From Mariniblastus sp. (GTDB taxonomy: Bacteria; Planctomycetota; Planctomycetia; Pirellulales; Pirellulaceae): a stretch of DNA of 64,000 bases. The stretch is taken from the NCBI GenBank assembly GCA_022447605.1, contig JAKVBG010000001.1:393919-457918 (forward strand), written 5' to 3'. The notes under the pieces are model-generated. The model made no database searches. It saw nothing but the letters and a program-made list of their open reading frames with translations, and was not told where the DNA came from. Positions within the stretch are counted from its first letter, which is position 1; every line of letters starts with the position of its first letter. Below, one piece after another: positions 18,781 to 64,000 of the stretch. A program made the position numbers and the translations under genes.

Positions 18781-19962
18781 TCAGTCGAGTGATGAAAGGG
18801 CCTGGACCAAACGGTCAATATCATTCCCGTTGTTGTAACAATGTACCGACGCCCGCAGCTTGCCGCCCCGACAACTGACGACGACCCCTTGCTCCAGCAA
18901 TTTCAGACGATCCTCGGTGGTCGTTTTCTGGTGGTAATCAAACGAGACGATGCCCGTTTTCGATGCCGCATCCCGATCGCTCAACACAACGGCCCCACAT
19001 TCCTCAAGTGCCCGGCAAAGTTCATCGGAAACCGAGATCACCTGTTCCGCGATCGGTGAATGATCAGAGGCGAGCCCAAATTCGGTCAACAACTCGAGGC
19101 TCGCCCCGAGGGCAATGAAACCCGCCATGTTCTGGGTCCCCCCTTCGTAGCGCGAGGCAGATTCCCGGTACTTCAGATCGATTTTGTCGAAGTCATTTCC
19201 CTGCTTGACGCTGTTCCAGCCAATGTTCATCGGCTTGAGCGTCTCTAACAAATCGTGGCGGACATAAAAAACACCAGCCCCTTCCGGGCCCAGCAACCAC
19301 TTGTGACCGTCGGCGGCGAGGAAATCAATACCGGCTGCCTGGACATCCAATGGGAAAACACCCAGTCCTTGAATCGCATCCAGGAAGAACAGCGCCCCGC
19401 AGTCGTGCGCGACTTTCCCGATTTCCATGGGATCCAGGCGGTAACCGGACGCGTAGCCAACCCAGCTGGCACTCACCACACGGGTTCGTCGATCGCAGGC
19501 ATCCGCCATGCGGGCCGGGCATACCCGATTACCATCGAGAGGAACCAGGCGAAGCTCCACCCCTTGCGATTCAAGATGCATCCAGGGGTAGAGATTGGAA
19601 GGAAATTCATGTTCTGGCAGGACGACATTGTCGCCCGCCTCCCAGGGCAAACCACTGGCCACCAGGTTGATCCCGAAGGTCGTGTTGGGAATCAGTGCGA
19701 TTTCCTGCGGCTTGGCATTGATCACCTGGGCGGTCAAATCGCGCAAGTCTTCATGTTGCCGGAACCAGCTTGGCCAACACGTAGCTCCTTCAAAAGCCGC
19801 CTGCTCAGCCCAGACCGACAGACGGTCGCGGGCCAGACGGGGAATGGGAGCCACCGCAGCGTGGTCAAAATAGGCCCATTTCTCAGCAACAGGCATCTCC
19901 TGGCGAAAAACTGTCCAGTCGATCTGGTCGCCAGTCCGTTTCGTTTTTGAATCTAAAACCAT
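18781..19962 (-). CDS. Class V aminotransferase (cysteine-desulfurase-like fold)
   Basis: A PLP enzyme of about 393 residues with the class V aminotransferase fold. The Schiff-base lysine is in AADGHKWLLGPEG, preceded by FLDAIQGLGVFPLD, the Asp/Gln region that contacts the cofactor. The start at 19962 (MVLDSKTKRTG) is preferred over the track's TTG-type start 93 bases upstream. Members include cysteine desulfurases, isopenicillin N epimerases and kynureninase-like enzymes. I see no cysteine-rich active loop typical of IscS, so substrate and reaction remain open. An 8-base-pair hairpin lies about 45 bases upstream. coaD follows 12 bases downstream. Confidence 0.88.
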   Translation of the reverse strand: MVLDSKTKRTGDQIDWTVFRQEMPVAEKWAYFDHAAVAPIPRLARDRLSVWAEQAAFEGATCWPSWFRQHEDLRDLTAQVINAKPQEIALIPNTTFGINLVASGLPWEAGDNVVLPEHEFPSNLYPWMHLESQGVELRLVPLDGNRVCPARMADACDRRTRVVSASWVGYASGYRLDPMEIGKVAHDCGALFFLDAIQGLGVFPLDVQAAGIDFLAADGHKWLLGPEGAGVFYVRHDLLETLKPMNIGWNSVKQGNDFDKIDLKYRESASRYEGGTQNMAGFIALGASLELLTEFGLASDHSPIAEQVISVSDELCRALEECGAVVLSDRDAASKTGIVSFDYHQKTTTEDRLKLLEQGVVVSCRGGKLRASVHCYNNGNDIDRLVQALSSLD

Positions 19963-20005
19963 GGGAATTAACCGGAAATTAGAATTTATTCGAGACAAGT
20001 CGAGT

Positions 20006-20025
20006 ATAAAACGGGGGCGTTTTAT
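20006..20025. promoter_or_regulatory. Perfect 8-bp inverted repeat with GGGG loop
   Basis: ATAAAACG and CGTTTTAT flank a four-base GGGG centre, making a perfect inverted repeat 44 bases upstream of the aminotransferase start. It could be an operator or a 5' leader hairpin. The 343-base gap 19963-20305 holds nothing else that I can support as a gene; the 69-residue track ORF at 20068 has no recognisable features. Confidence 0.35.
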
Positions 20026-20305
20026 GCTAATTTTTGTACCGGATAACCGGAACAATTAATCATAACGATGCTTTCCAAGCAGCATAATGAGCTTTTCAGA
20101 AGGTTGGCCAATATTCCTTGGCGTGACAGGCTGAAACTGCCAATTATACTAGCTGAACGGTTATCCAACCCATCCAGCCCAATTGCTCTAGATTATATTT
20201 GGCCGATCGTGGGTAGGTTGTTTCATTTACAAAAACTGTTGGCTCAGAATCGTTTAAATCATTCCTGGCCCAGTTAGCGCGGATCAAAGTTGAGGAAATC
20301 TGTAA

Positions 20306-20509
20306 GTGCAGAAGGCTCTTTGTATCGCAGCATTGGCAATCGCTGTAATTGTATTTGCTCTGTTCCTTGCTGACCTCGTATTGGGTATGGCCGGCTCGAT
20401 TGAAATTGCGCCGTTCAAATACGCCAATTCGACGATTGATATTGTGTTTGTCATCTGTTCGTTGATGCTGGCTGTTCTTAGCTGGTTCACCTTTCGGGAA
20501 CAGGTTTAG
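20306..20509 (+). CDS. Small membrane protein with two transmembrane segments
   Basis: A 67-residue protein starting at GTG, with GAGG about 10 bases upstream. It has two clear hydrophobic helices, ALCIAALAIAVIVFALFLADLVLGM and TIDIVFVICSLMLAVLSWF, joined by a short loop (GSIEIAPFKYANS), and an N-terminal lysine. The pattern of hydrophobic segments and the good ribosome binding site argue for a real gene. It resembles small conserved planctomycete membrane proteins of unknown function; I cannot name it. It converges on hemD with about 100 bases between stops. Confidence 0.6.
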   Translation: MQKALCIAALAIAVIVFALFLADLVLGMAGSIEIAPFKYANSTIDIVFVICSLMLAVLSWFTFREQV

Positions 20510-20610
20510 CGACGCCCCGGCCCGCTTCACTTGACTTCCGGATGCCTGTGCGGGAATCGTTCAATCTCGCCGTATCGCTCGGCCCACCTCGCCGCCAACC
20601 TGCGCGCCGT

Positions 20611-21390
20611 TCAGTCGCGGCCCGACGGAACCATCGCTGCGACCAGACCGTTGAAATCGTAATGTTCCGCTTCCACATCGGGCGGATAACCGAGCGCATC
20701 CAGCACCCCGCTGGTGGTGGGGCTGATGCTGGCCAGGCGCGTCCTTCTCAAGGAATCGCCGTATAACCTGACCAGAGATCGGGCAATCGCCGAGCTGGTC
20801 ACGGTCACCCAGTCAATGAGTCCCTGGCCCATCCGGTCAACGGTCTTCCTGTCAACCACTTCGACGTCGGCCGAACGGTAGGCAACCACCTGTTGAAACG
20901 GGATATCCCCGGATGAGAGTTGCTGGGGGAGTACGCGGCTGCCGCGATCACCACGAAAGATCAGGAACGGGGCATGTTGACGCTGCTCGATCAGCAGATC
21001 TGCCATCGCCTGGCTGTTGGATTGACCTGGCACGTGGCTCGACTTCCCGGTCAGACGTTCCAGCTCGGCGGCCGTCCCTTGCCCGATGGTAAAGCAGCCA
21101 AGGCTTCCCAGTGAGTCAATGAGACCATCCCTTTCCCCCAGGGATTCCGCTCGGTCAACGACCGCCTGGACGCCGTGTCGGCTGAGGAAAACAGCACCCT
21201 GGTACTGTTGGATTGACCGCAGCGCACGATCGAGGTCATCCCAGGCCACCGGCGGCAGGATCTGGATCACCGGGCTGTAGACAACCGAGGCTCCCATGTC
21301 TGCCAGACGGGTGCCCAACGGGTCCTGGCCCGCCTGCACTGGTCGCGGAATCAGTACCGTTTGACTAGCAAGTGGAGATTCCACGTTCAA
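20611..21390 (-). CDS. hemD: Uroporphyrinogen-III synthase
   Basis: A 259-residue HemD-type protein. It closes and inverts ring D of hydroxymethylbilane to give uroporphyrinogen III in haem and sirohaem synthesis. The family has little sequence identity, but the two-lobe pattern is seen: VLIPRPVQAGQDPLGTRLADMGASVVYSPVI in the first strand-helix unit, AVFLSRHGVQAVV, and the late VTVTSSAIARSLVRLYG and ASISPTTSGVLDALGYPPDV motifs. The start is a TTG in the track; a GTG two codons later is equally possible. No other haem gene is adjacent. It is divergent from rpsT. Confidence 0.88.
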   Translation of the reverse strand: MNVESPLASQTVLIPRPVQAGQDPLGTRLADMGASVVYSPVIQILPPVAWDDLDRALRSIQQYQGAVFLSRHGVQAVVDRAESLGERDGLIDSLGSLGCFTIGQGTAAELERLTGKSSHVPGQSNSQAMADLLIEQRQHAPFLIFRGDRGSRVLPQQLSSGDIPFQQVVAYRSADVEVVDRKTVDRMGQGLIDWVTVTSSAIARSLVRLYGDSLRRTRLASISPTTSGVLDALGYPPDVEAEHYDFNGLVAAMVPSGRD

Positions 21391-53382: not shown

Positions 53383-54408
53383 CTAGTAGCCTCGAATCGC
53401 CTCGATATCACTGAAATCGGTCAGGTGATAGCCGACATGAGCCTGGTCACAAAGCTTGCAAAAAGAGCGGAGTGCTACACCAAAGCCGTCCGGTCCGCTG
53501 AACCCACCAAATTGACCTCCCCCTTTTACATGCGGCTCGAGATCGGCAAACATCCCGTCCACGCCCCGCCTTGCCAGACGCTGGTTCAATTCCGGCAGAT
53601 AACTTTTCAAGTCCCTCAGGATTTCCAGGTAACCCGAGTTGCCGTGTTCGACAGGGACAAAGTGCTTCAAGGCATCTTCATCCACATGAGTAACCCGCTT
53701 CATCGGGTCCGGGTTTCGGAAATCCTTGACATGAATCCAGCCAAGCCCGGGCTTCATCGCCTGGTACTGGGAGAAGATCTCCGCCTGGGAATAACCTTGA
53801 GAAACAAGATTGCCGCCGTCGAATATCAATAGCAGCGCCTCGCTATCCACCCGGCGATGAATCTCTGCCAACAGTTGGCCATTCTGACCAACCAGGTTCG
53901 CCTCCACTTCCAGGCCGAAGGTCAAATCGTGCGAATCACAAAGGGCGGCGATTTCCACGAGCTGTTCAATCACTGCATCCAGGTGTTCCTCAGGTGGCTG
54001 GCCCTTGGGGTGGTAAAACGAAAAACCGCGTATCAACTTTGAACCAAAACGGACAGCCAGGTCACAAGCTTTCTGGACCTCGGTTTGAAGATACTCCTGA
54101 AACGGAACAAAACGATTCATCGTCCCGTCATCGACGTTCAGCAACTTGACCTTGCCAATCGGCGAACCGATCGAAGAAACACGCAGGTGATATTCCTCCA
54201 GTTTCGTGGCAACCCGGTCAATTTCAAATTCATCCAACTCCATCAGGTTTTTGGTGCCGGAGCCGGCATCGACAAACCTCAACGAAACATATTGCAGCCC
54301 CATGGCAGTCATGGCGGAAAACTGCTGGTCCATTGTTTTCTGGTTGGCTGACTCGTCAGAAAAACCGGACAGGATCAATTGTTCATTTTTCATTGCGTTA
54401 TGCACCAT
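53383..54408 (-). CDS. Sugar phosphate isomerase/epimerase-like TIM barrel
   Basis: A 341-residue protein of the xylose-isomerase-like TIM barrel superfamily (AP endonuclease family 2-like). The alternating barrel pattern shows in YVSLRFVDAG, LTFGLEVEANLVGQN, LLLIFDGGNLVSQGYS and LGWIHVKDFRNP, with potential metal-binding Glu, Asp, His and Asp/Glu in the usual places. Its ATG overlaps the stop of queF by one base (TAATG), so translation is probably coupled. The substrate is unknown. An in-frame ATG at 54393 is an alternative start. Confidence 0.85.
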   Translation of the reverse strand: MVHNAMKNEQLILSGFSDESANQKTMDQQFSAMTAMGLQYVSLRFVDAGSGTKNLMELDEFEIDRVATKLEEYHLRVSSIGSPIGKVKLLNVDDGTMNRFVPFQEYLQTEVQKACDLAVRFGSKLIRGFSFYHPKGQPPEEHLDAVIEQLVEIAALCDSHDLTFGLEVEANLVGQNGQLLAEIHRRVDSEALLLIFDGGNLVSQGYSQAEIFSQYQAMKPGLGWIHVKDFRNPDPMKRVTHVDEDALKHFVPVEHGNSGYLEILRDLKSYLPELNQRLARRGVDGMFADLEPHVKGGGQFGGFSGPDGFGVALRSFCKLCDQAHVGYHLTDFSDIEAIRGY

Positions 54409-54764
54409 TACGATTTGACATGCTCGACAACGATGACGGACGACAATCCACCCCGCGGGGTAAATTCAGCCGTCAGGGTAACGTGACGAGGTTGGACTTT
54501 GGCCACGAAATCGTCCAGAATACTGTTGGTCACATCTTCATAGAAAATACCTTCATTGCGGAACTTCTGGAGATACAATTTAAGGCTCTTCAGTTCGATG
54601 CATTTTTCGTCGGGCACGTAGCGGAATGTCATGATACCAAAATCGGGCTGACCCGTTTTTGGACAGACGGAAGTAAATTCCGGGCATTCGATTTCGATGG
54701 TGTAATCTCGGCTGGAAAACTGGTTATCAAACGTTTCGAGATCTTCACAGAACTTGGTTGGCAT
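54408..54764 (-). CDS. queF: NADPH-dependent 7-cyano-7-deazaguanine reductase
   Basis: A 118-residue type I QueF that reduces preQ0 to preQ1 in queuosine synthesis. The nucleophilic cysteine is in [15 protein letters not shown]. The family motif [22 protein letters not shown] is intact, and the length fits the short type. AAGG lies 7 bases upstream of the ATG. It is divergent from queE, which makes 7-carboxy-7-deazaguanine two steps earlier, and its stop overlaps the start of a sugar-isomerase-like gene. No preQ1 riboswitch was recognised in the leader. Confidence 0.97.
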
Positions 54765-54814
54765 GTTCTACCTTTGGCCTAAATAGTTGAAACGGAGACG
54801 GCTCAACCGGGCAC

Positions 54815-54840
54815 CGTGCTTTCGAGAAATCAACAGCACG
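54815..54840. promoter_or_regulatory. 6-bp inverted repeat in the queF-queE divergent region
   Basis: CGTGCT and AGCACG are exact reverse complements with a 14-base spacer, located between the two divergent queuosine genes. It might be a shared operator, but the short arms mean chance is possible. Confidence 0.3.
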
Positions 54841-54859
54841 CCTTTCGGAATCCGACATC

Positions 54860-55546
54860 ATGTTAGTATCTGAAATCTACAGTTCTCGACAAGGTGAAGG
54901 ACGCCTCACAGGTCAACCGAGTATTTTTGTCAGAACGAGCGGCTGTAACTTGCGGTGCGACTTTTGCGACACACCCTATACTTCCTGGACACCGGAAGGA
55001 CGCGATACCCCGATCGGGGACGTGCTGCAGGAAGTTGGCCAATTCAGCCCACAGCACGTGGTTTTGACGGGAGGTGAGCCGATGTTGCCTCGATCCGTTG
55101 TCGAACTGACCCATCTCCTGCAGGAGCAAAACTACCACATCACGATCGAAACCTCGGGCACCATATTCCGTGAAGTCCACTGTGACCTGATGTCGATCAG
55201 TCCAAAATTGGCCAACTCGACTCCCAGCTTCAGCCGGGCAGGGGACTGGTCCCTGCGGCATGAGAATGCGCGCCATCGTCCCGAGATTGTCGACCAGTTG
55301 ATCCAGCGACATGACTACCAGTTGAAATTTGTGGTCAGCAGCCCCTCGGACGTTGATGAAATCGAACGGTACCTGGAAGAACTGAGTACCGTCAATCGCC
55401 AACAGGTACTGCTGATGCCCGAGGGAGTCGAATCATCCAAGCTTGAGGATCGGGCGAAATGGCTGGTGCCGATATGTGAGGAACGTCAGTTCACCTACTG
55501 CCCCCGCATGCATATCCAATGGTATGGGAACCGAAGGGGCACCTGA
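54860..55546 (+). CDS. queE: 7-carboxy-7-deazaguanine synthase (radical SAM)
   Basis: A 228-residue QueE that converts 6-carboxytetrahydropterin to 7-carboxy-7-deazaguanine. The N-terminal MLVSEIYSSRQGEGRLTGQPSIFVR is family-typical. The radical-SAM cluster motif is CNLRCDFCD (CxxxCxxC) near residue 29, and TGGEPML is the SAM-binding GGEP. The product feeds QueC then QueF; queF is the divergent neighbour. The PTPS-type gene at 12580 might provide the earlier step, though its motif is not clearly QueD-like. Confidence 0.97.
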   Translation: MLVSEIYSSRQGEGRLTGQPSIFVRTSGCNLRCDFCDTPYTSWTPEGRDTPIGDVLQEVGQFSPQHVVLTGGEPMLPRSVVELTHLLQEQNYHITIETSGTIFREVHCDLMSISPKLANSTPSFSRAGDWSLRHENARHRPEIVDQLIQRHDYQLKFVVSSPSDVDEIERYLEELSTVNRQQVLLMPEGVESSKLEDRAKWLVPICEERQFTYCPRMHIQWYGNRRGT

Positions 55547-59746: not shown

Positions 59747-61582
59747 TTACCGAACGCGGCATTTGAACTGGATCACACCACCCGATGTTTTCTCAATCGG
59801 CTTGATGATCTCCCAGGCCAAGCGGAGGGAACCGGCTTCGTTGACTTCGGTTACCAACTTGGCATCGAGTGTGCACGAGGCAGATTCTGGAATGAATTCC
59901 AACCGGGGAGAAAGGTTGTCGATGATCGTGACATTGCCCATCCTCTGACTACCTACATTGTCAAAGCGGATCGTGAAATCAACTTCGTCTCCCGGTTTGG
60001 CACTGATGCGGGAGGCGAGCTTGCACAACCGCAAGACCGGTTGCTGCGTTTCGGATTCACTCCCGACGACTTCTTGCATGGTGGCAACATCATTGACAAT
60101 GACCGCCTGGGCATTCTTGACTGTCATCTGGGCTGCCACATCGATATCCCAGGCGAGTGCCGATTGCATGCCCAGGGTAAGACGTGCCGACTCTGTATTT
60201 TCGAATCGCCCAAACTTGACCAACTGCAGATTGCCGAAGGCCTTCATGGTTGCGTACGAACCGACCAGGTGAATCGTATTGTCCAAAACAACGCTACGGT
60301 TGTGATCCTTGAACGAATTGGCTCGGTAAGATGCCTTGTTACTTTGCAGCCGCAGTTGCTGCAGCGTACTGGAGGACATATCCTGCCCCCGGGTTTGATC
60401 GGTATGGTCTTTTCGTTGCACGGAAGCCAGCGAAACGGCAGTGTTAGCGTGGCCGAGGTTGTAGACCTTGCGCACCGCCGCAAAACGAGGCGAGTAAATA
60501 CAAACCCGGTTACTCGGCACCAGGATCGTTTCTCCCTGCAACGTATCAAAATGGCCGACCGTGTCTTCGATCCCCAGGCCCGTAACCTTCCAATTCTCAT
60601 CGACCTGGGCTTGTGGCAACCGATCGCAACCATCACAGATAAACTCGTCCGGGCGGTGCAGCCGTGTCTGAGGCATGCCGTTGGCACCGCCGGGCAGGGC
60701 AGGGGAGTTATCCTGAATCAGGTGACCCGGCTGACCACCAACCGGCCTGGTCCGCCACTCGTATACCGCTTTGGCCGATGTCGGCTGGCGATAGGAAACC
60801 AGGCTGGCAACAGCACCTTTCCCACCGGTGTCGGTGGTTTCGTTAACCTCCGCATCGTTCTCGCGGGCAGGTGTGGGGAGTTGTTCCTGATAAAACTGAA
60901 CAGGGGGACTGAAGAACTCGAAATTCCCATCATTGCTCGAGGGAATCGGGGCCCGCGTCCCCATTCTGACGATCGCCATGGGACGCCCCAAACGGGCCGC
61001 CACACCAAAGGGATCCTCCCGGAATCCAACGTCAAACGTCGACTGATGACTCTCCTGCTGGCGATAGGGCAGGGCGGTCATGGGATCCTCCAGGTAAATG
61101 ACCTTGGTGACCATCTTGCCCCGAGCCACTTGCAACAGATCGTTGTAGTGGATCGCGATCTCGACCGGGTGTTCGATGGCCAGGCCCTCGGGCGGGTAAA
61201 GCCTGTCCAACATTTCAATCGACGGGTAAACTTCCAGCCCCGGATGGCCCTTGATGTTGTTGATCTTGATCCGATAAACGGGACCTACCGTCAACCCACC
61301 CATCACGGAATCCGGCTGGGCCGGGGTGAAGGAACCTTCATTCCAGAACGCAACCGTCGCATTTTCAGGGACTTCGATCCGAACCGGTTGCACATATTGA
61401 CTCAATTCCGGGTCACGAAGCAACTGTAACCTGGCCATCGTTCCGGGTGAGACAGCGCCGTTAATCAACTCCTGGCGTGACGGGGCAAATTGGCCCTGCG
61501 CCAACGCGGGCTCGAGCAGGGAAGCCAACACCAGAACGAGTGTGGACAGCGACAGGATACGGAAATCATGCAACAGGTTCAT
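59747..61582 (-). CDS. Secreted DUF11-domain protein
   Basis: A protein of about 611 residues; start at 61582 (MNLLHDFRILSLSTL) with a signal peptide ending at ALAQG. A domain at about 75-190 (VYRIKINNIKGHPGLEVYPS and VTKVIYLEDPMT) is shared with the lipoprotein encoded just upstream. The C-terminal region has a DUF11-type repeat (KPGDEVDFTIRFDNVGSQRMGNVTIIDNLSP), which is frequent in large outer-envelope proteins. The gene is 136 bases after the lipoprotein gene on the same strand. It may be a cell-envelope structural protein. Confidence 0.85.
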   Translation of the reverse strand: MNLLHDFRILSLSTLVLVLASLLEPALAQGQFAPSRQELINGAVSPGTMARLQLLRDPELSQYVQPVRIEVPENATVAFWNEGSFTPAQPDSVMGGLTVGPVYRIKINNIKGHPGLEVYPSIEMLDRLYPPEGLAIEHPVEIAIHYNDLLQVARGKMVTKVIYLEDPMTALPYRQQESHQSTFDVGFREDPFGVAARLGRPMAIVRMGTRAPIPSSNDGNFEFFSPPVQFYQEQLPTPARENDAEVNETTDTGGKGAVASLVSYRQPTSAKAVYEWRTRPVGGQPGHLIQDNSPALPGGANGMPQTRLHRPDEFICDGCDRLPQAQVDENWKVTGLGIEDTVGHFDTLQGETILVPSNRVCIYSPRFAAVRKVYNLGHANTAVSLASVQRKDHTDQTRGQDMSSSTLQQLRLQSNKASYRANSFKDHNRSVVLDNTIHLVGSYATMKAFGNLQLVKFGRFENTESARLTLGMQSALAWDIDVAAQMTVKNAQAVIVNDVATMQEVVGSESETQQPVLRLCKLASRISAKPGDEVDFTIRFDNVGSQRMGNVTIIDNLSPRLEFIPESASCTLDAKLVTEVNEAGSLRLAWEIIKPIEKTSGGVIQFKCRVR

Positions 61583-61718
61583 GTCAACAGTTCCGAACAT
61601 GAGCAACGGATTTGAAATAACAGGACAGCCCAAGCTGCCAGGCCCAAGTAACCGACTTATAACGCAAGCCGTCCCGGACGGGTGTCCGAGACGGGCTCAC
61701 GATAAAGTCAGTGGAACA

Positions 61719-62828
61719 CTATCGTCGGCGATGCAACAAACCTTGCGGCGGACAGTAGGGAATCTGTCCGTGCACCATGTCCGCCGGTGGCTGACCATTG
61801 GCAAAGCCCGGACGAATGGTTTGCTCTCTGATCATCACCCGGTTAACCGGCTGAGGATAGGACAAACCTGGATTCTGCTTGACATGCACGTCGACCGAAG
61901 GCGTCGGATTGGGAATCTGCATAGCCGTGTGGTTGTACAGGTCATAACGCTGAAGCCCAGCTGGTCCTCCCATCGGAATATGCGGGGGACCGGGCAATCC
62001 AATTTGCGTTGCTGTCCAGGGCATTCCATAGGAAGGGCCACTGACACCGGAAATGTAACCATCGGTCTGAACGCCAGGCGCTCCGTTCATGGTACCTGCC
62101 ACGGCGGCAGCATCGGTACCGGGAACTTCGAGGTCCTTGTTGCCGATTCGCAAGATAGCCAGGATGGCTCCCCGCCGATCAGCTTCCGTGATCGGGTCAA
62201 CGCCTGGATCCAAGCGAGTGCTTACCAGCGTATCAACACCAGCCAGTGCCAATTCCTGGTACTCGGGATCTGGGACGTAGATGACCTTGGTGACAAAGTT
62301 ACCAGCATTGACCTGGTCAAAATCTTCCTGGGTCATCTGGATGGGTACCGCGGAATGGGCCAGGTACGCTGCCGTCCGGGTCGATACGGTCCCGATTTCC
62401 AGAGTCGGGTACAACTCCAGGCCTTCCTGGCCTTCGATGTTGGTCAACTTCAGACGGTAAATGCATCCTTGTCCGAAATTCTGACGACCCGGAACTACTA
62501 AGGGAGTTGAATCATACTGTCCAACTCCGTTGACATCCCAGTGGATGTTCATCATGGCCGGCTTGTCGAACAAAATCTGTACTTTTTGCTGGGCAACAGA
62601 TCCCATGGGACCATGGGCCACATTGGCATTACCATTAGCAGCATAGGATGAAGCGGACAGAACCCCAGGTCCAGGTCCACCGACTCCCGGGCCGGGTTCC
62701 ATCAGCATTTGTGCTGGTGGCAAATTATGACTCACTGGTATGCCCGTTCTTACAACCGGAACTTGACATCCGGTTACCATGACGGCCAATGCCAGCATCA
62801 TCAATCCTGTCGAGATACGCGAGTGCAT
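61719..62828 (-). CDS. Lipoprotein sharing a domain with the DUF11 protein
   Basis: A lipoprotein of about 369 residues; start at 62828 (MHSRISTGLMMLALAVMVTGC), with GGGGGG at about 7 bases upstream. The lipobox cysteine is at residue 21. The middle part (IYRLKLTNIEGQEGLELYPTLEI and VTKVIYVPDPEYQEL) matches the domain in the neighbouring DUF11 protein. The C-terminus is rich in Pro and Gly (GLPGPPHIPMGGPAG). A function in cell-surface assembly is inferred from anchoring and pairing only. The upstream gap to the TIR-like gene is about 260 bases. Confidence 0.82.
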   Translation of the reverse strand: MHSRISTGLMMLALAVMVTGCQVPVVRTGIPVSHNLPPAQMLMEPGPGVGGPGPGVLSASSYAANGNANVAHGPMGSVAQQKVQILFDKPAMMNIHWDVNGVGQYDSTPLVVPGRQNFGQGCIYRLKLTNIEGQEGLELYPTLEIGTVSTRTAAYLAHSAVPIQMTQEDFDQVNAGNFVTKVIYVPDPEYQELALAGVDTLVSTRLDPGVDPITEADRRGAILAILRIGNKDLEVPGTDAAAVAGTMNGAPGVQTDGYISGVSGPSYGMPWTATQIGLPGPPHIPMGGPAGLQRYDLYNHTAMQIPNPTPSVDVHVKQNPGLSYPQPVNRVMIREQTIRPGFANGQPPADMVHGQIPYCPPQGLLHRRR

Positions 62829-63091
62829 CAGATTCCCCCCTAAGTTTGTACGCCGGACGATGCTGATGTTCACATCCGACCCTCTCTCGTGGCGAGAGAA
62901 GAATTTTGTGTTTCCAAATGTCTGACGATGGGACTCTTCGATTCAGCTTCGTAAAAAACTGACATAGACCCGTTCTAGCGTCACTCCTAAAATAAGCCAT
63001 GTTGAAGACTTACAAGGTTCCTGGCATCCGGGTTGCAACGGCCTGGCTGCTGCATTTACAACAAAACCGGCATTTGCGGGATCACCTGGAA

Positions 63092-64000
63092 TCAGCAATT
63101 TTCTCCCTGGGTCAACACAGTTTGCCGCCTGTTGGTAACCGACGGTCGATCTGCTGTTGGCATAGGTAGTAACGCTGCTCTTTGTTTTCGGCGCGTCATA
63201 ATGAATATCTTTGGAAAAATCCGCACATCCGTTTCAATGAAGTTGGAATTGCCATTTGCCATCTTCTTGCTAGCGGCCGGCTGCCTGCTCTGGTTCCATT
63301 TATAGATCGCAAAACCTGCCAGCAGGGTAACCAAAATAGCAACAGCCATCAATAGTCCAGTCCGGTTTTGGACAATTTTGTCCCCCATGATTTTATCCCC
63401 TTCGACCTTGTCTCCAGCGACTACATCGCCTTGGACATGCCCTTCTACATGCGAGCCTTTTATTGTTGTTGTGGTTGTTACAACATCTCCTACATGTACA
63501 TTTCCGCCAGCAGAAATGGTACTGCCTATGACTGTATTCTTGTTCGTATATGTGGTAGAAGGAGATGTCTGAGGCTCGGAAATGGGTTCGGTCTTCGGCT
63601 CCCGAATCTCAACACCTGCCTGTTCAAGATCCCGAAGTAATAATTTCAGGCTGGATTCAAAATATTGAGGGTCGGAAAAATCCCGATAGTTGAGGCCGGG
63701 CAAAAAGCTGAGTTCGGGACATCGGGTTTCCAAAAAGTCACACACCTCCTCCCAGTTGGCCCCAACCAGAACCGGTATCATCTTTGGCCGTTTCTGACTT
63801 TTATGAGCTGTAAGTAATTCCTGCCGCACCCAATCTTCTGGGTCCAACAACCTACGTTTCTCTTCTACATCAGTAACCGTATGCCAGGTCGACCCAATGA
63901 CCACAAGAACAACCTTTACTTCAACAATACTTTTCAAGAGAACATTGGCAAATTCTGCTCCACCCGAAATGGAGTCCAGATCATAAAACAGGCTTCCTTC
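63092..64000 (-). CDS. TIR-like protein with Gly-Asp repeat stalk and C-terminal membrane helix (partial)
   Basis: The 5' end of this gene lies beyond the right edge; the frame remains open to base 64000, with 302 residues visible. The first part fits the C-terminal half of a TIR-type domain: SISGGAEF, VVLVVIGSTWHTV and LDPEDWVRQELLTA, where the Glu of WVRQEL is at the position of the catalytic glutamate in NAD-cleaving TIRs. MIPVLVGANWEEV follows. About residues 145-210 hold repeats of the xxGDx type (VQGDVVAGDKVEGDKIMGDK), then a single transmembrane helix LLMAVAILVTLLAGFAIYKW and a basic tail. TIR-type proteins often act in bacterial immunity or signalling. Base composition is lower in GC than in the rest of the window. 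Confidence 0.75.
   Translation of the reverse strand, partial: EGSLFYDLDSISGGAEFANVLLKSIVEVKVVLVVIGSTWHTVTDVEEKRRLLDPEDWVRQELLTAHKSQKRPKMIPVLVGANWEEVCDFLETRCPELSFLPGLNYRDFSDPQYFESSLKLLLRDLEQAGVEIREPKTEPISEPQTSPSTTYTNKNTVIGSTISAGGNVHVGDVVTTTTTIKGSHVEGHVQGDVVAGDKVEGDKIMGDKIVQNRTGLLMAVAILVTLLAGFAIYKWNQSRQPAASKKMANGNSNFIETDVRIFPKIFIMTRRKQRAALLPMPTADRPSVTNRRQTVLTQGENC

What the first reader, a model, noticed from the sequence alone, without database searches (positions are those of the whole stretch)
63092..64000. TIR-like effector with a GD-repeat stalk and C-terminal membrane anchor
The visible part has a TIR C-terminal half with a preserved candidate catalytic Glu (WVRQEL), then five-residue xxGDx repeats and one membrane helix. 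TIR domains in bacteria often cleave NAD or make signalling nucleotides in anti-phage or cell-death systems. Gly-Asp-rich five-residue repeats of this kind are found in some conflict-system proteins. A tail-anchored TIR with such a stalk could form a membrane-tethered sensor or effector array. The gene continues past the edge, and its neighbours there could be a defence locus.
Basis: partly seen in the sequence, partly recalled or inferred. Interest (0 to 1): 0.75.

Follow-up and report, generated by a model that had tools for sequence, protein, structure and literature searches.

The report
Truncated membrane TIR gene at contig tip
The window ends in a 704-base piece of a gene for a membrane-tethered TIR protein, probably an NAD-cutting immune enzyme of a known kind, but the piece lacks both ends, its apparent C-terminal tail is the backward reading of an unrelated conserved gene, and its join to this chromosome may be a recent insertion or an assembly error.

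Summary
The TIR call holds. Residues 1-129 of the open frame match other TIR domains. A profile of the fragment plus 14 same-class relatives hits the SARM1 TIR at E=5e-11, and the predicted fold matches SARM1. The Glu in WVRQEL aligns with SARM1's catalytic Glu and is invariant in 33 sequences. The four in-step GD repeats are real (0 of 200,000 shuffles), and a hydrophobic helix follows.

The "C-terminal anchor" does not hold. The gene is cut at its 5' end by the end of the contig, not only of the window. At 63296/63297 (codon 235) the sequence switches to the native locus. The last 68 residues are antisense of a gene conserved in 16 of 16 congeners checked; the rest of that gene sits about 45 bp on, at the tip of contig C140. 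So this is an internal fragment: about 33 N-terminal residues and everything after the membrane helix are missing. Its GC (46% vs 56%) is foreign, and TIR_2 is rare in the genus (3 of 28). Insertion and contig-tip chimera cannot be told apart here.

Known neighbours are housekeeping, not a defence island. GD linkers recur in NACHT, CHAT, caspase and EAD proteins. Likely a membrane-tethered TIR NADase; modest interest.

The parts
63297..64000 (-). 704-bp low-GC segment: internal fragment of a TIR gene (residues 1-234 of the open frame), open at the contig end and at the junction
63614..64000 (-). TIR domain, C-terminal about three quarters (from the FxDxDSI strand onward; about 33 N-terminal residues with the FISYRR motif missing)
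   Evidence: Pfam TIR_2 E=0.0015 below cut-off; 29 of 398 same-class genomes hold relatives, best E 7e-14; profile to SARM1 E=5e-11; fold match to SARM1 TIR
63818..63820 (-). codon of the candidate catalytic Glu (residue 61, WVRQEL), aligned with SARM1 DWVHKE; invariant in 33 aligned TIRs
63371..63478 (-). GD-type five-residue repeat linker (residues 175-210, ..GSHVEGHVQGDVVAGDKVEGDKIMGDKI..), predicted disordered (pLDDT about 30-46)
63299..63361 (-). single hydrophobic helix (residues 214-234, TGLLMAVAILVTLLAGFAIYK), ends at the junction
63296..63298 (-). junction codon 235: homology to congeners ends at or shortly before 63296
63092..63295 (-). last 67 codons and stop of the open frame: spurious tail, antisense of a conserved gene's upstream region and first codons
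63237..63296 (+). first 20 codons (MKLELPFAIFLLAAGCLLWF) of a conserved ~355-residue gene of unknown family, cut by the junction; the remainder is on G000:C140 (34627-35583), about 45 bp further on by comparison with G026
61719..62873 (-). conserved lipoprotein-like gene, the anchor of the synteny comparison (25 of 28 same-genus genomes)

Best explanation
The segment 63297-64000 is an internal piece of a probably horizontally acquired gene for a single-pass membrane protein: cytoplasmic TIR domain, then a flexible Gly-Asp repeat linker, then one membrane helix, and most likely a further domain on the other side of the membrane that is not seen here. It most likely works as a TIR NADase (or maker of an NAD-derived signal) held at the membrane and switched on when the TIR domains are brought together, leading to NAD loss or signalling during phage attack or other stress. 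Shown here: TIR relation, conserved Glu, repeats, helix, foreign composition, junction. Inferred: NADase activity, activation by clustering, defence role, the missing C-terminal domain. In this genome the piece abuts the start of a broken conserved gene, so as assembled it is either the edge of an insertion or a contig-tip chimera, and the encoded frame as it stands is not a whole functional protein.
For: TIR: relatives in 29 of 398 same-class genomes, alignment, profile to SARM1 E=5e-11, Foldseek top hits SARM1 TIR, then plant TIRs, prob 1.00. Glu conserved in all 33; all prokaryotic TIR NADases examined need it (PMC7282519). Architecture: six same-class TIR proteins have a single helix just after the TIR and a C-terminal region, five with more Lys/Arg on the TIR side as for TIR-inside topology (for the sixth, L128, one search scored the wrong segment). 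GD linkers in conflict proteins, in a TIR protein (L169) and before a helix (L088, L114). Foreign: GC, GC3 43.6% against 57-69% in four window genes, tetranucleotides; TIR_2 in 3 of 28 congeners. Junction.
Against: The whole gene is not seen; the N-terminal strand and motif are absent, so an intact active site cannot be shown. No three-part TIR-GD-helix protein was found elsewhere. Some TIR domains with the Glu act as scaffolds. No defence genes are linked. PADLOC gives only a weak bSEFIR match (E=0.008).
Confidence: 0.6

Rival explanations
1. Contig-tip chimera: the TIR piece belongs to another place or another organism and was joined to the tip of C1 by the assembler; the genome itself has an intact conserved gene running from C1 into C140.
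For: The segment runs to the very end of the contig; the two halves of the conserved gene lie on two contig tips about 45 bp apart; GC is foreign; all 16 congeners have the gene intact; no other TIR_2 gene in this assembly; assembly of 203 contigs with 4% estimated contamination.
Against: No shared long word explains a wrong turn at the junction: the TIR side and the native side show no homology. 704 bp is longer than a typical single chimeric short read (technology unknown). Foreign GC fits an insertion equally well.
Confidence: 0.42
2. Real insertion or rearrangement in this strain or part of the population: a foreign piece carrying the TIR gene's 3' part interrupts the conserved gene after codon 20, breaking both genes.
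For: Sharp junction, foreign composition, patchy TIR_2 in the genus, about 45 bp missing between the two tips as in an insertion with a small deletion.
Against: The C140 tip carries none of the insert; no transposase or repeat was seen; the TIR frame would be left truncated.
Confidence: 0.48
3. One reading: an intact tail-anchored TIR effector with a natural 68-residue C-terminal tail.
For: The frame is open through the junction to a stop at 63092.
Against: The tail is antisense of a conserved gene's start, collinear with G026 at 86.5% identity; it begins exactly where homology ends.
Confidence: 0.04
4. The TIR is a non-enzymatic scaffold or receptor tail that passes a signal by self-association only.
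For: TIR domains self-associate (literature); receptor-like layout in relatives.
Against: Catalytic-type Glu invariant in the group.
Confidence: 0.2

Closest known systems
TIR_2 domain (Pfam PF13676), same-class TIR-helix-C-domain proteins such as L004, L127, L130, L134, L145
   Same: About 30-45% identical TIR, same motifs and Glu, single hydrophobic helix soon after the TIR
   Different: They lack GD repeats and keep an intact N-terminus and a further C-terminal region; the window piece has neither end
SARM1 TIR NADase
   Same: Profile E=5e-11, fold match, Glu in DWVHKE aligned with DWVRQE
   Different: SARM1 has ARM and SAM domains; no GD linker or membrane helix of this kind
Thoeris ThsB / other TIR anti-phage proteins
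   Same: TIR family; full-length relative L004 weakly matches ThsB (E=7e-6) and type III Thoeris ThcB4 (E=7e-9)
   Different: ThcB4 match far below the curated cut-off; no ThsA partner known; window piece matches neither
GD-repeat linker proteins of STAND/EAD/CHAT/caspase systems (Chloroflexi, cyanobacteria and others)
   Same: Same GDKVxGDKIx units; one is a TIR protein (L169); two place the repeats just before a helix (L088, L114)
   Different: In L169 the repeats precede the TIR; the other domains differ

Membership tests
TIR domain (TIR_2) | Sequence or profile relation to known TIR domains | tested here: met
   Pfam alone E=0.0015, below the curated cut-off, as expected of a truncated domain
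TIR domain (TIR_2) | Flavodoxin-like TIR fold | tested here: met
   model pLDDT about 90 over most of residues 20-140; Foldseek SARM1 prob 1.00; first strand and helix missing
TIR NADase | Catalytic Glu in the alpha-C helix | tested here: met
TIR NADase | N-terminal strand and loop that complete the active site | tested here: inconclusive
   lies beyond the contig end
TIR NADase | NAD cleavage | not testable with these tools
   needs protein
Thoeris system | ThsA-type partner next to the TIR gene | tested here: inconclusive
   one flank is housekeeping and the other is not assembled
   the tail is antisense of a conserved gene
GD-repeat linkers of conflict proteins | At least three in-step xGDxx units | tested here: met

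The most novel reading that the evidence does not exclude
A receptor-like bacterial TIR NADase in which a Gly-Asp repeat linker joins a cytoplasmic TIR to a membrane helix and an outer sensor domain, so that membrane events pull or cluster the TIR domains; a layout in which the three parts were not found together elsewhere here.
Probability: 0.12. Interest if true: 0.5.

Novelty: new member of a known kind. Interest (0 to 1): 0.25.

Why it matters
It adds one fragment to membrane-tethered bacterial TIR proteins and ties the GD-repeat linker, recurrent in STAND, EAD and caspase systems, to a TIR-helix layout. It also shows how a frame that runs across a junction at a contig tip can fake a domain architecture.

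Tried and rejected
Looked for the missing N-terminus: no overlapping contig; two sub-threshold TIR_2 hits in the same assembly are other proteins (a carbamoyl-phosphate synthase-like and a YqgE-like frame, by sequence). Searched plasmids, phages and viral contigs: none. First genome-contig scan with the protein: none. GD-linker query in 294 genomes of the phylum: only chance-looking matches. PHROGs: nothing for this protein. Papers: no description of GD repeats with TIR found in the held library. In one search the C140 query coordinates carry a label offset of 62799; true positions are 30-2328 of L071. The first extraction of relatives read the wrong strand for many loci and was replaced. Considered that the native side was the error; rejected because it is collinear with congeners.

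Full report
What is in the window. The minus-strand frame 63092-64000 is open for 302 codons and runs off the right end. The window is contig C1 of the assembly, positions 393919-457918, and C1 is exactly 457918 bases long, so the gene is cut by the contig, not merely by the window. Against full-length relatives about 33 N-terminal residues are missing, including the FISYRR strand.

TIR identity. Pfam TIR_2 matches at E=0.0015, under its cut-off, as expected of a truncated domain. Direct searches find relatives in 3 other genomes of the 148-genome relatives set and in 29 of 398 of the same class, own genome counted, and most of these have complete TIR domains. A profile from 15 sequences, window piece included, finds SARM1 TIR structures at E=5e-11. 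The predicted structure (pLDDT about 90 over most of the domain) has SARM1 TIR as best Foldseek hits and plant TIRs next. The Glu of WVRQEL is invariant in 33 aligned sequences and aligns with SARM1 DWVHKE, whose Glu642 is needed for NAD hydrolysis; all prokaryotic TIRs examined need it (PMC7282519; that DWVHKE holds Glu642 is own knowledge).

Repeats and helix. Four GD pairs stand at exact five-residue spacing; no shuffle of 200,000 reached that. The region is predicted disordered and a helix covers residues 205-233. A scan of 85,462 species for three GDK[IVM]x units gave 52 loci. Of 25 of the encoded proteins scanned in Pfam, chosen mainly for length, about 15 carry NACHT, NB-ARC, CHAT, caspase, EAD1, EAD7, TCAD2, TCAD9, DUF4062 or a phosphorylase domain of the kind used as an effector. 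This selection is not random; the rest of the 52 include many short lipoprotein-like GDKM proteins and small cyanobacterial proteins. One Ardenticatenia genome has the repeats in front of a TIR (L169), and two proteins have them just before a helix (L088, L114).

The junction. The lipoprotein-like gene at 61719-62873 is present in 25 of 28 same-genus genomes. In all 16 inspected, a conserved plus-strand gene follows, in most of them then a D-Tyr-tRNA-deacylase-like gene and further ordinary genes. In the window, collinearity with G026 runs at 86.5% identity from 62800 to 63296 and stops there (alignment); it includes the start codon and first 20 codons of that conserved gene (63237-63296). From 63297 to 64000 nothing matches any congener. 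The remainder of the conserved gene and its usual neighbours lie at the tip of contig C140, starting about 45 bp after the break point by comparison with G026. Codon 235 of the 'TIR protein' straddles the break, so residues 235-302 are antisense of a conserved locus. The hydrophobic helix ends just before it, which is why the frame looked like a protein with a C-terminal anchor.

Origin of the segment. Its GC is 46.3% against 56.0% (sd 2.9%) in 704-bp windows of the rest; third-position GC is 43.6% against 57-69% in four window genes; tetranucleotide distance is in the top 0.6%. TIR_2 is found in 3 of 28 congeners, none in this assembly over threshold. This fits acquired DNA or DNA of another organism. 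A true insertion with small loss of sequence and a contig-tip chimera both explain two broken halves on two tips; reads are needed.

How it probably works. Six same-class relatives have TIR, one helix, then 70-360 more residues; in five of them Lys/Arg cluster on the TIR side of the helix (for L128 the script scored a segment inside the TIR, so it is not counted), the pattern of a cytoplasmic TIR with the C-terminal part outside. By analogy the window gene probably continued past the helix. The most likely mechanism is a membrane-held TIR NADase triggered by crowding. Activity, trigger and role are inferred, not shown. No defence genes are linked in what can be seen, and PADLOC and NCBIfam place even the intact relative only weakly near Thoeris proteins.

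Judgement. Real TIR, real repeats, real helix; misread protein end; unknown neighbours. A fragment of a known kind of protein with a mildly unusual linker.

Noticed in passing
63237-63296 and G000:C140:34627-35583: A conserved ~355-residue gene with no Pfam family, present next to the lipoprotein gene in 16 of 16 congeners, is split between two contig tips in this assembly.
   Followed up: partly
59747-61633 and 61719-62873: The two neighbouring minus-strand genes are distant paralogues (37% over about 110 residues); the larger has a DUF11 domain. The pair is conserved across the genus.
   Followed up: no
L169 (G764:C60): Ardenticatenia protein with GD repeats at the N-terminus directly followed by a TIR domain.
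   Followed up: partly
L114:6333-8000: Anaerolineae protein with six GD units, then a helix, then a long C-terminal region; the N-terminal domain is cut off by the locus end.
   Followed up: partly
L091:3358-3702, L097, L119, L079: Short, mostly lipoprotein-like proteins with many GDKMx repeats (about ten units in L091), a different use of the same five-residue unit.
   Followed up: no
L099:2231-4039, L104, L115, L100, L094, L093: GD-repeat linkers accompany EAD7, TCAD9, TCAD2 and caspase domains; no mention of this linker type turned up in term searches of the two main papers on these systems.
   Followed up: partly
19651-20654 and 53951-55054: Two other low-GC stretches (46-49%) in the window; the frames there look like ordinary chromosomal genes.
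   Followed up: partly
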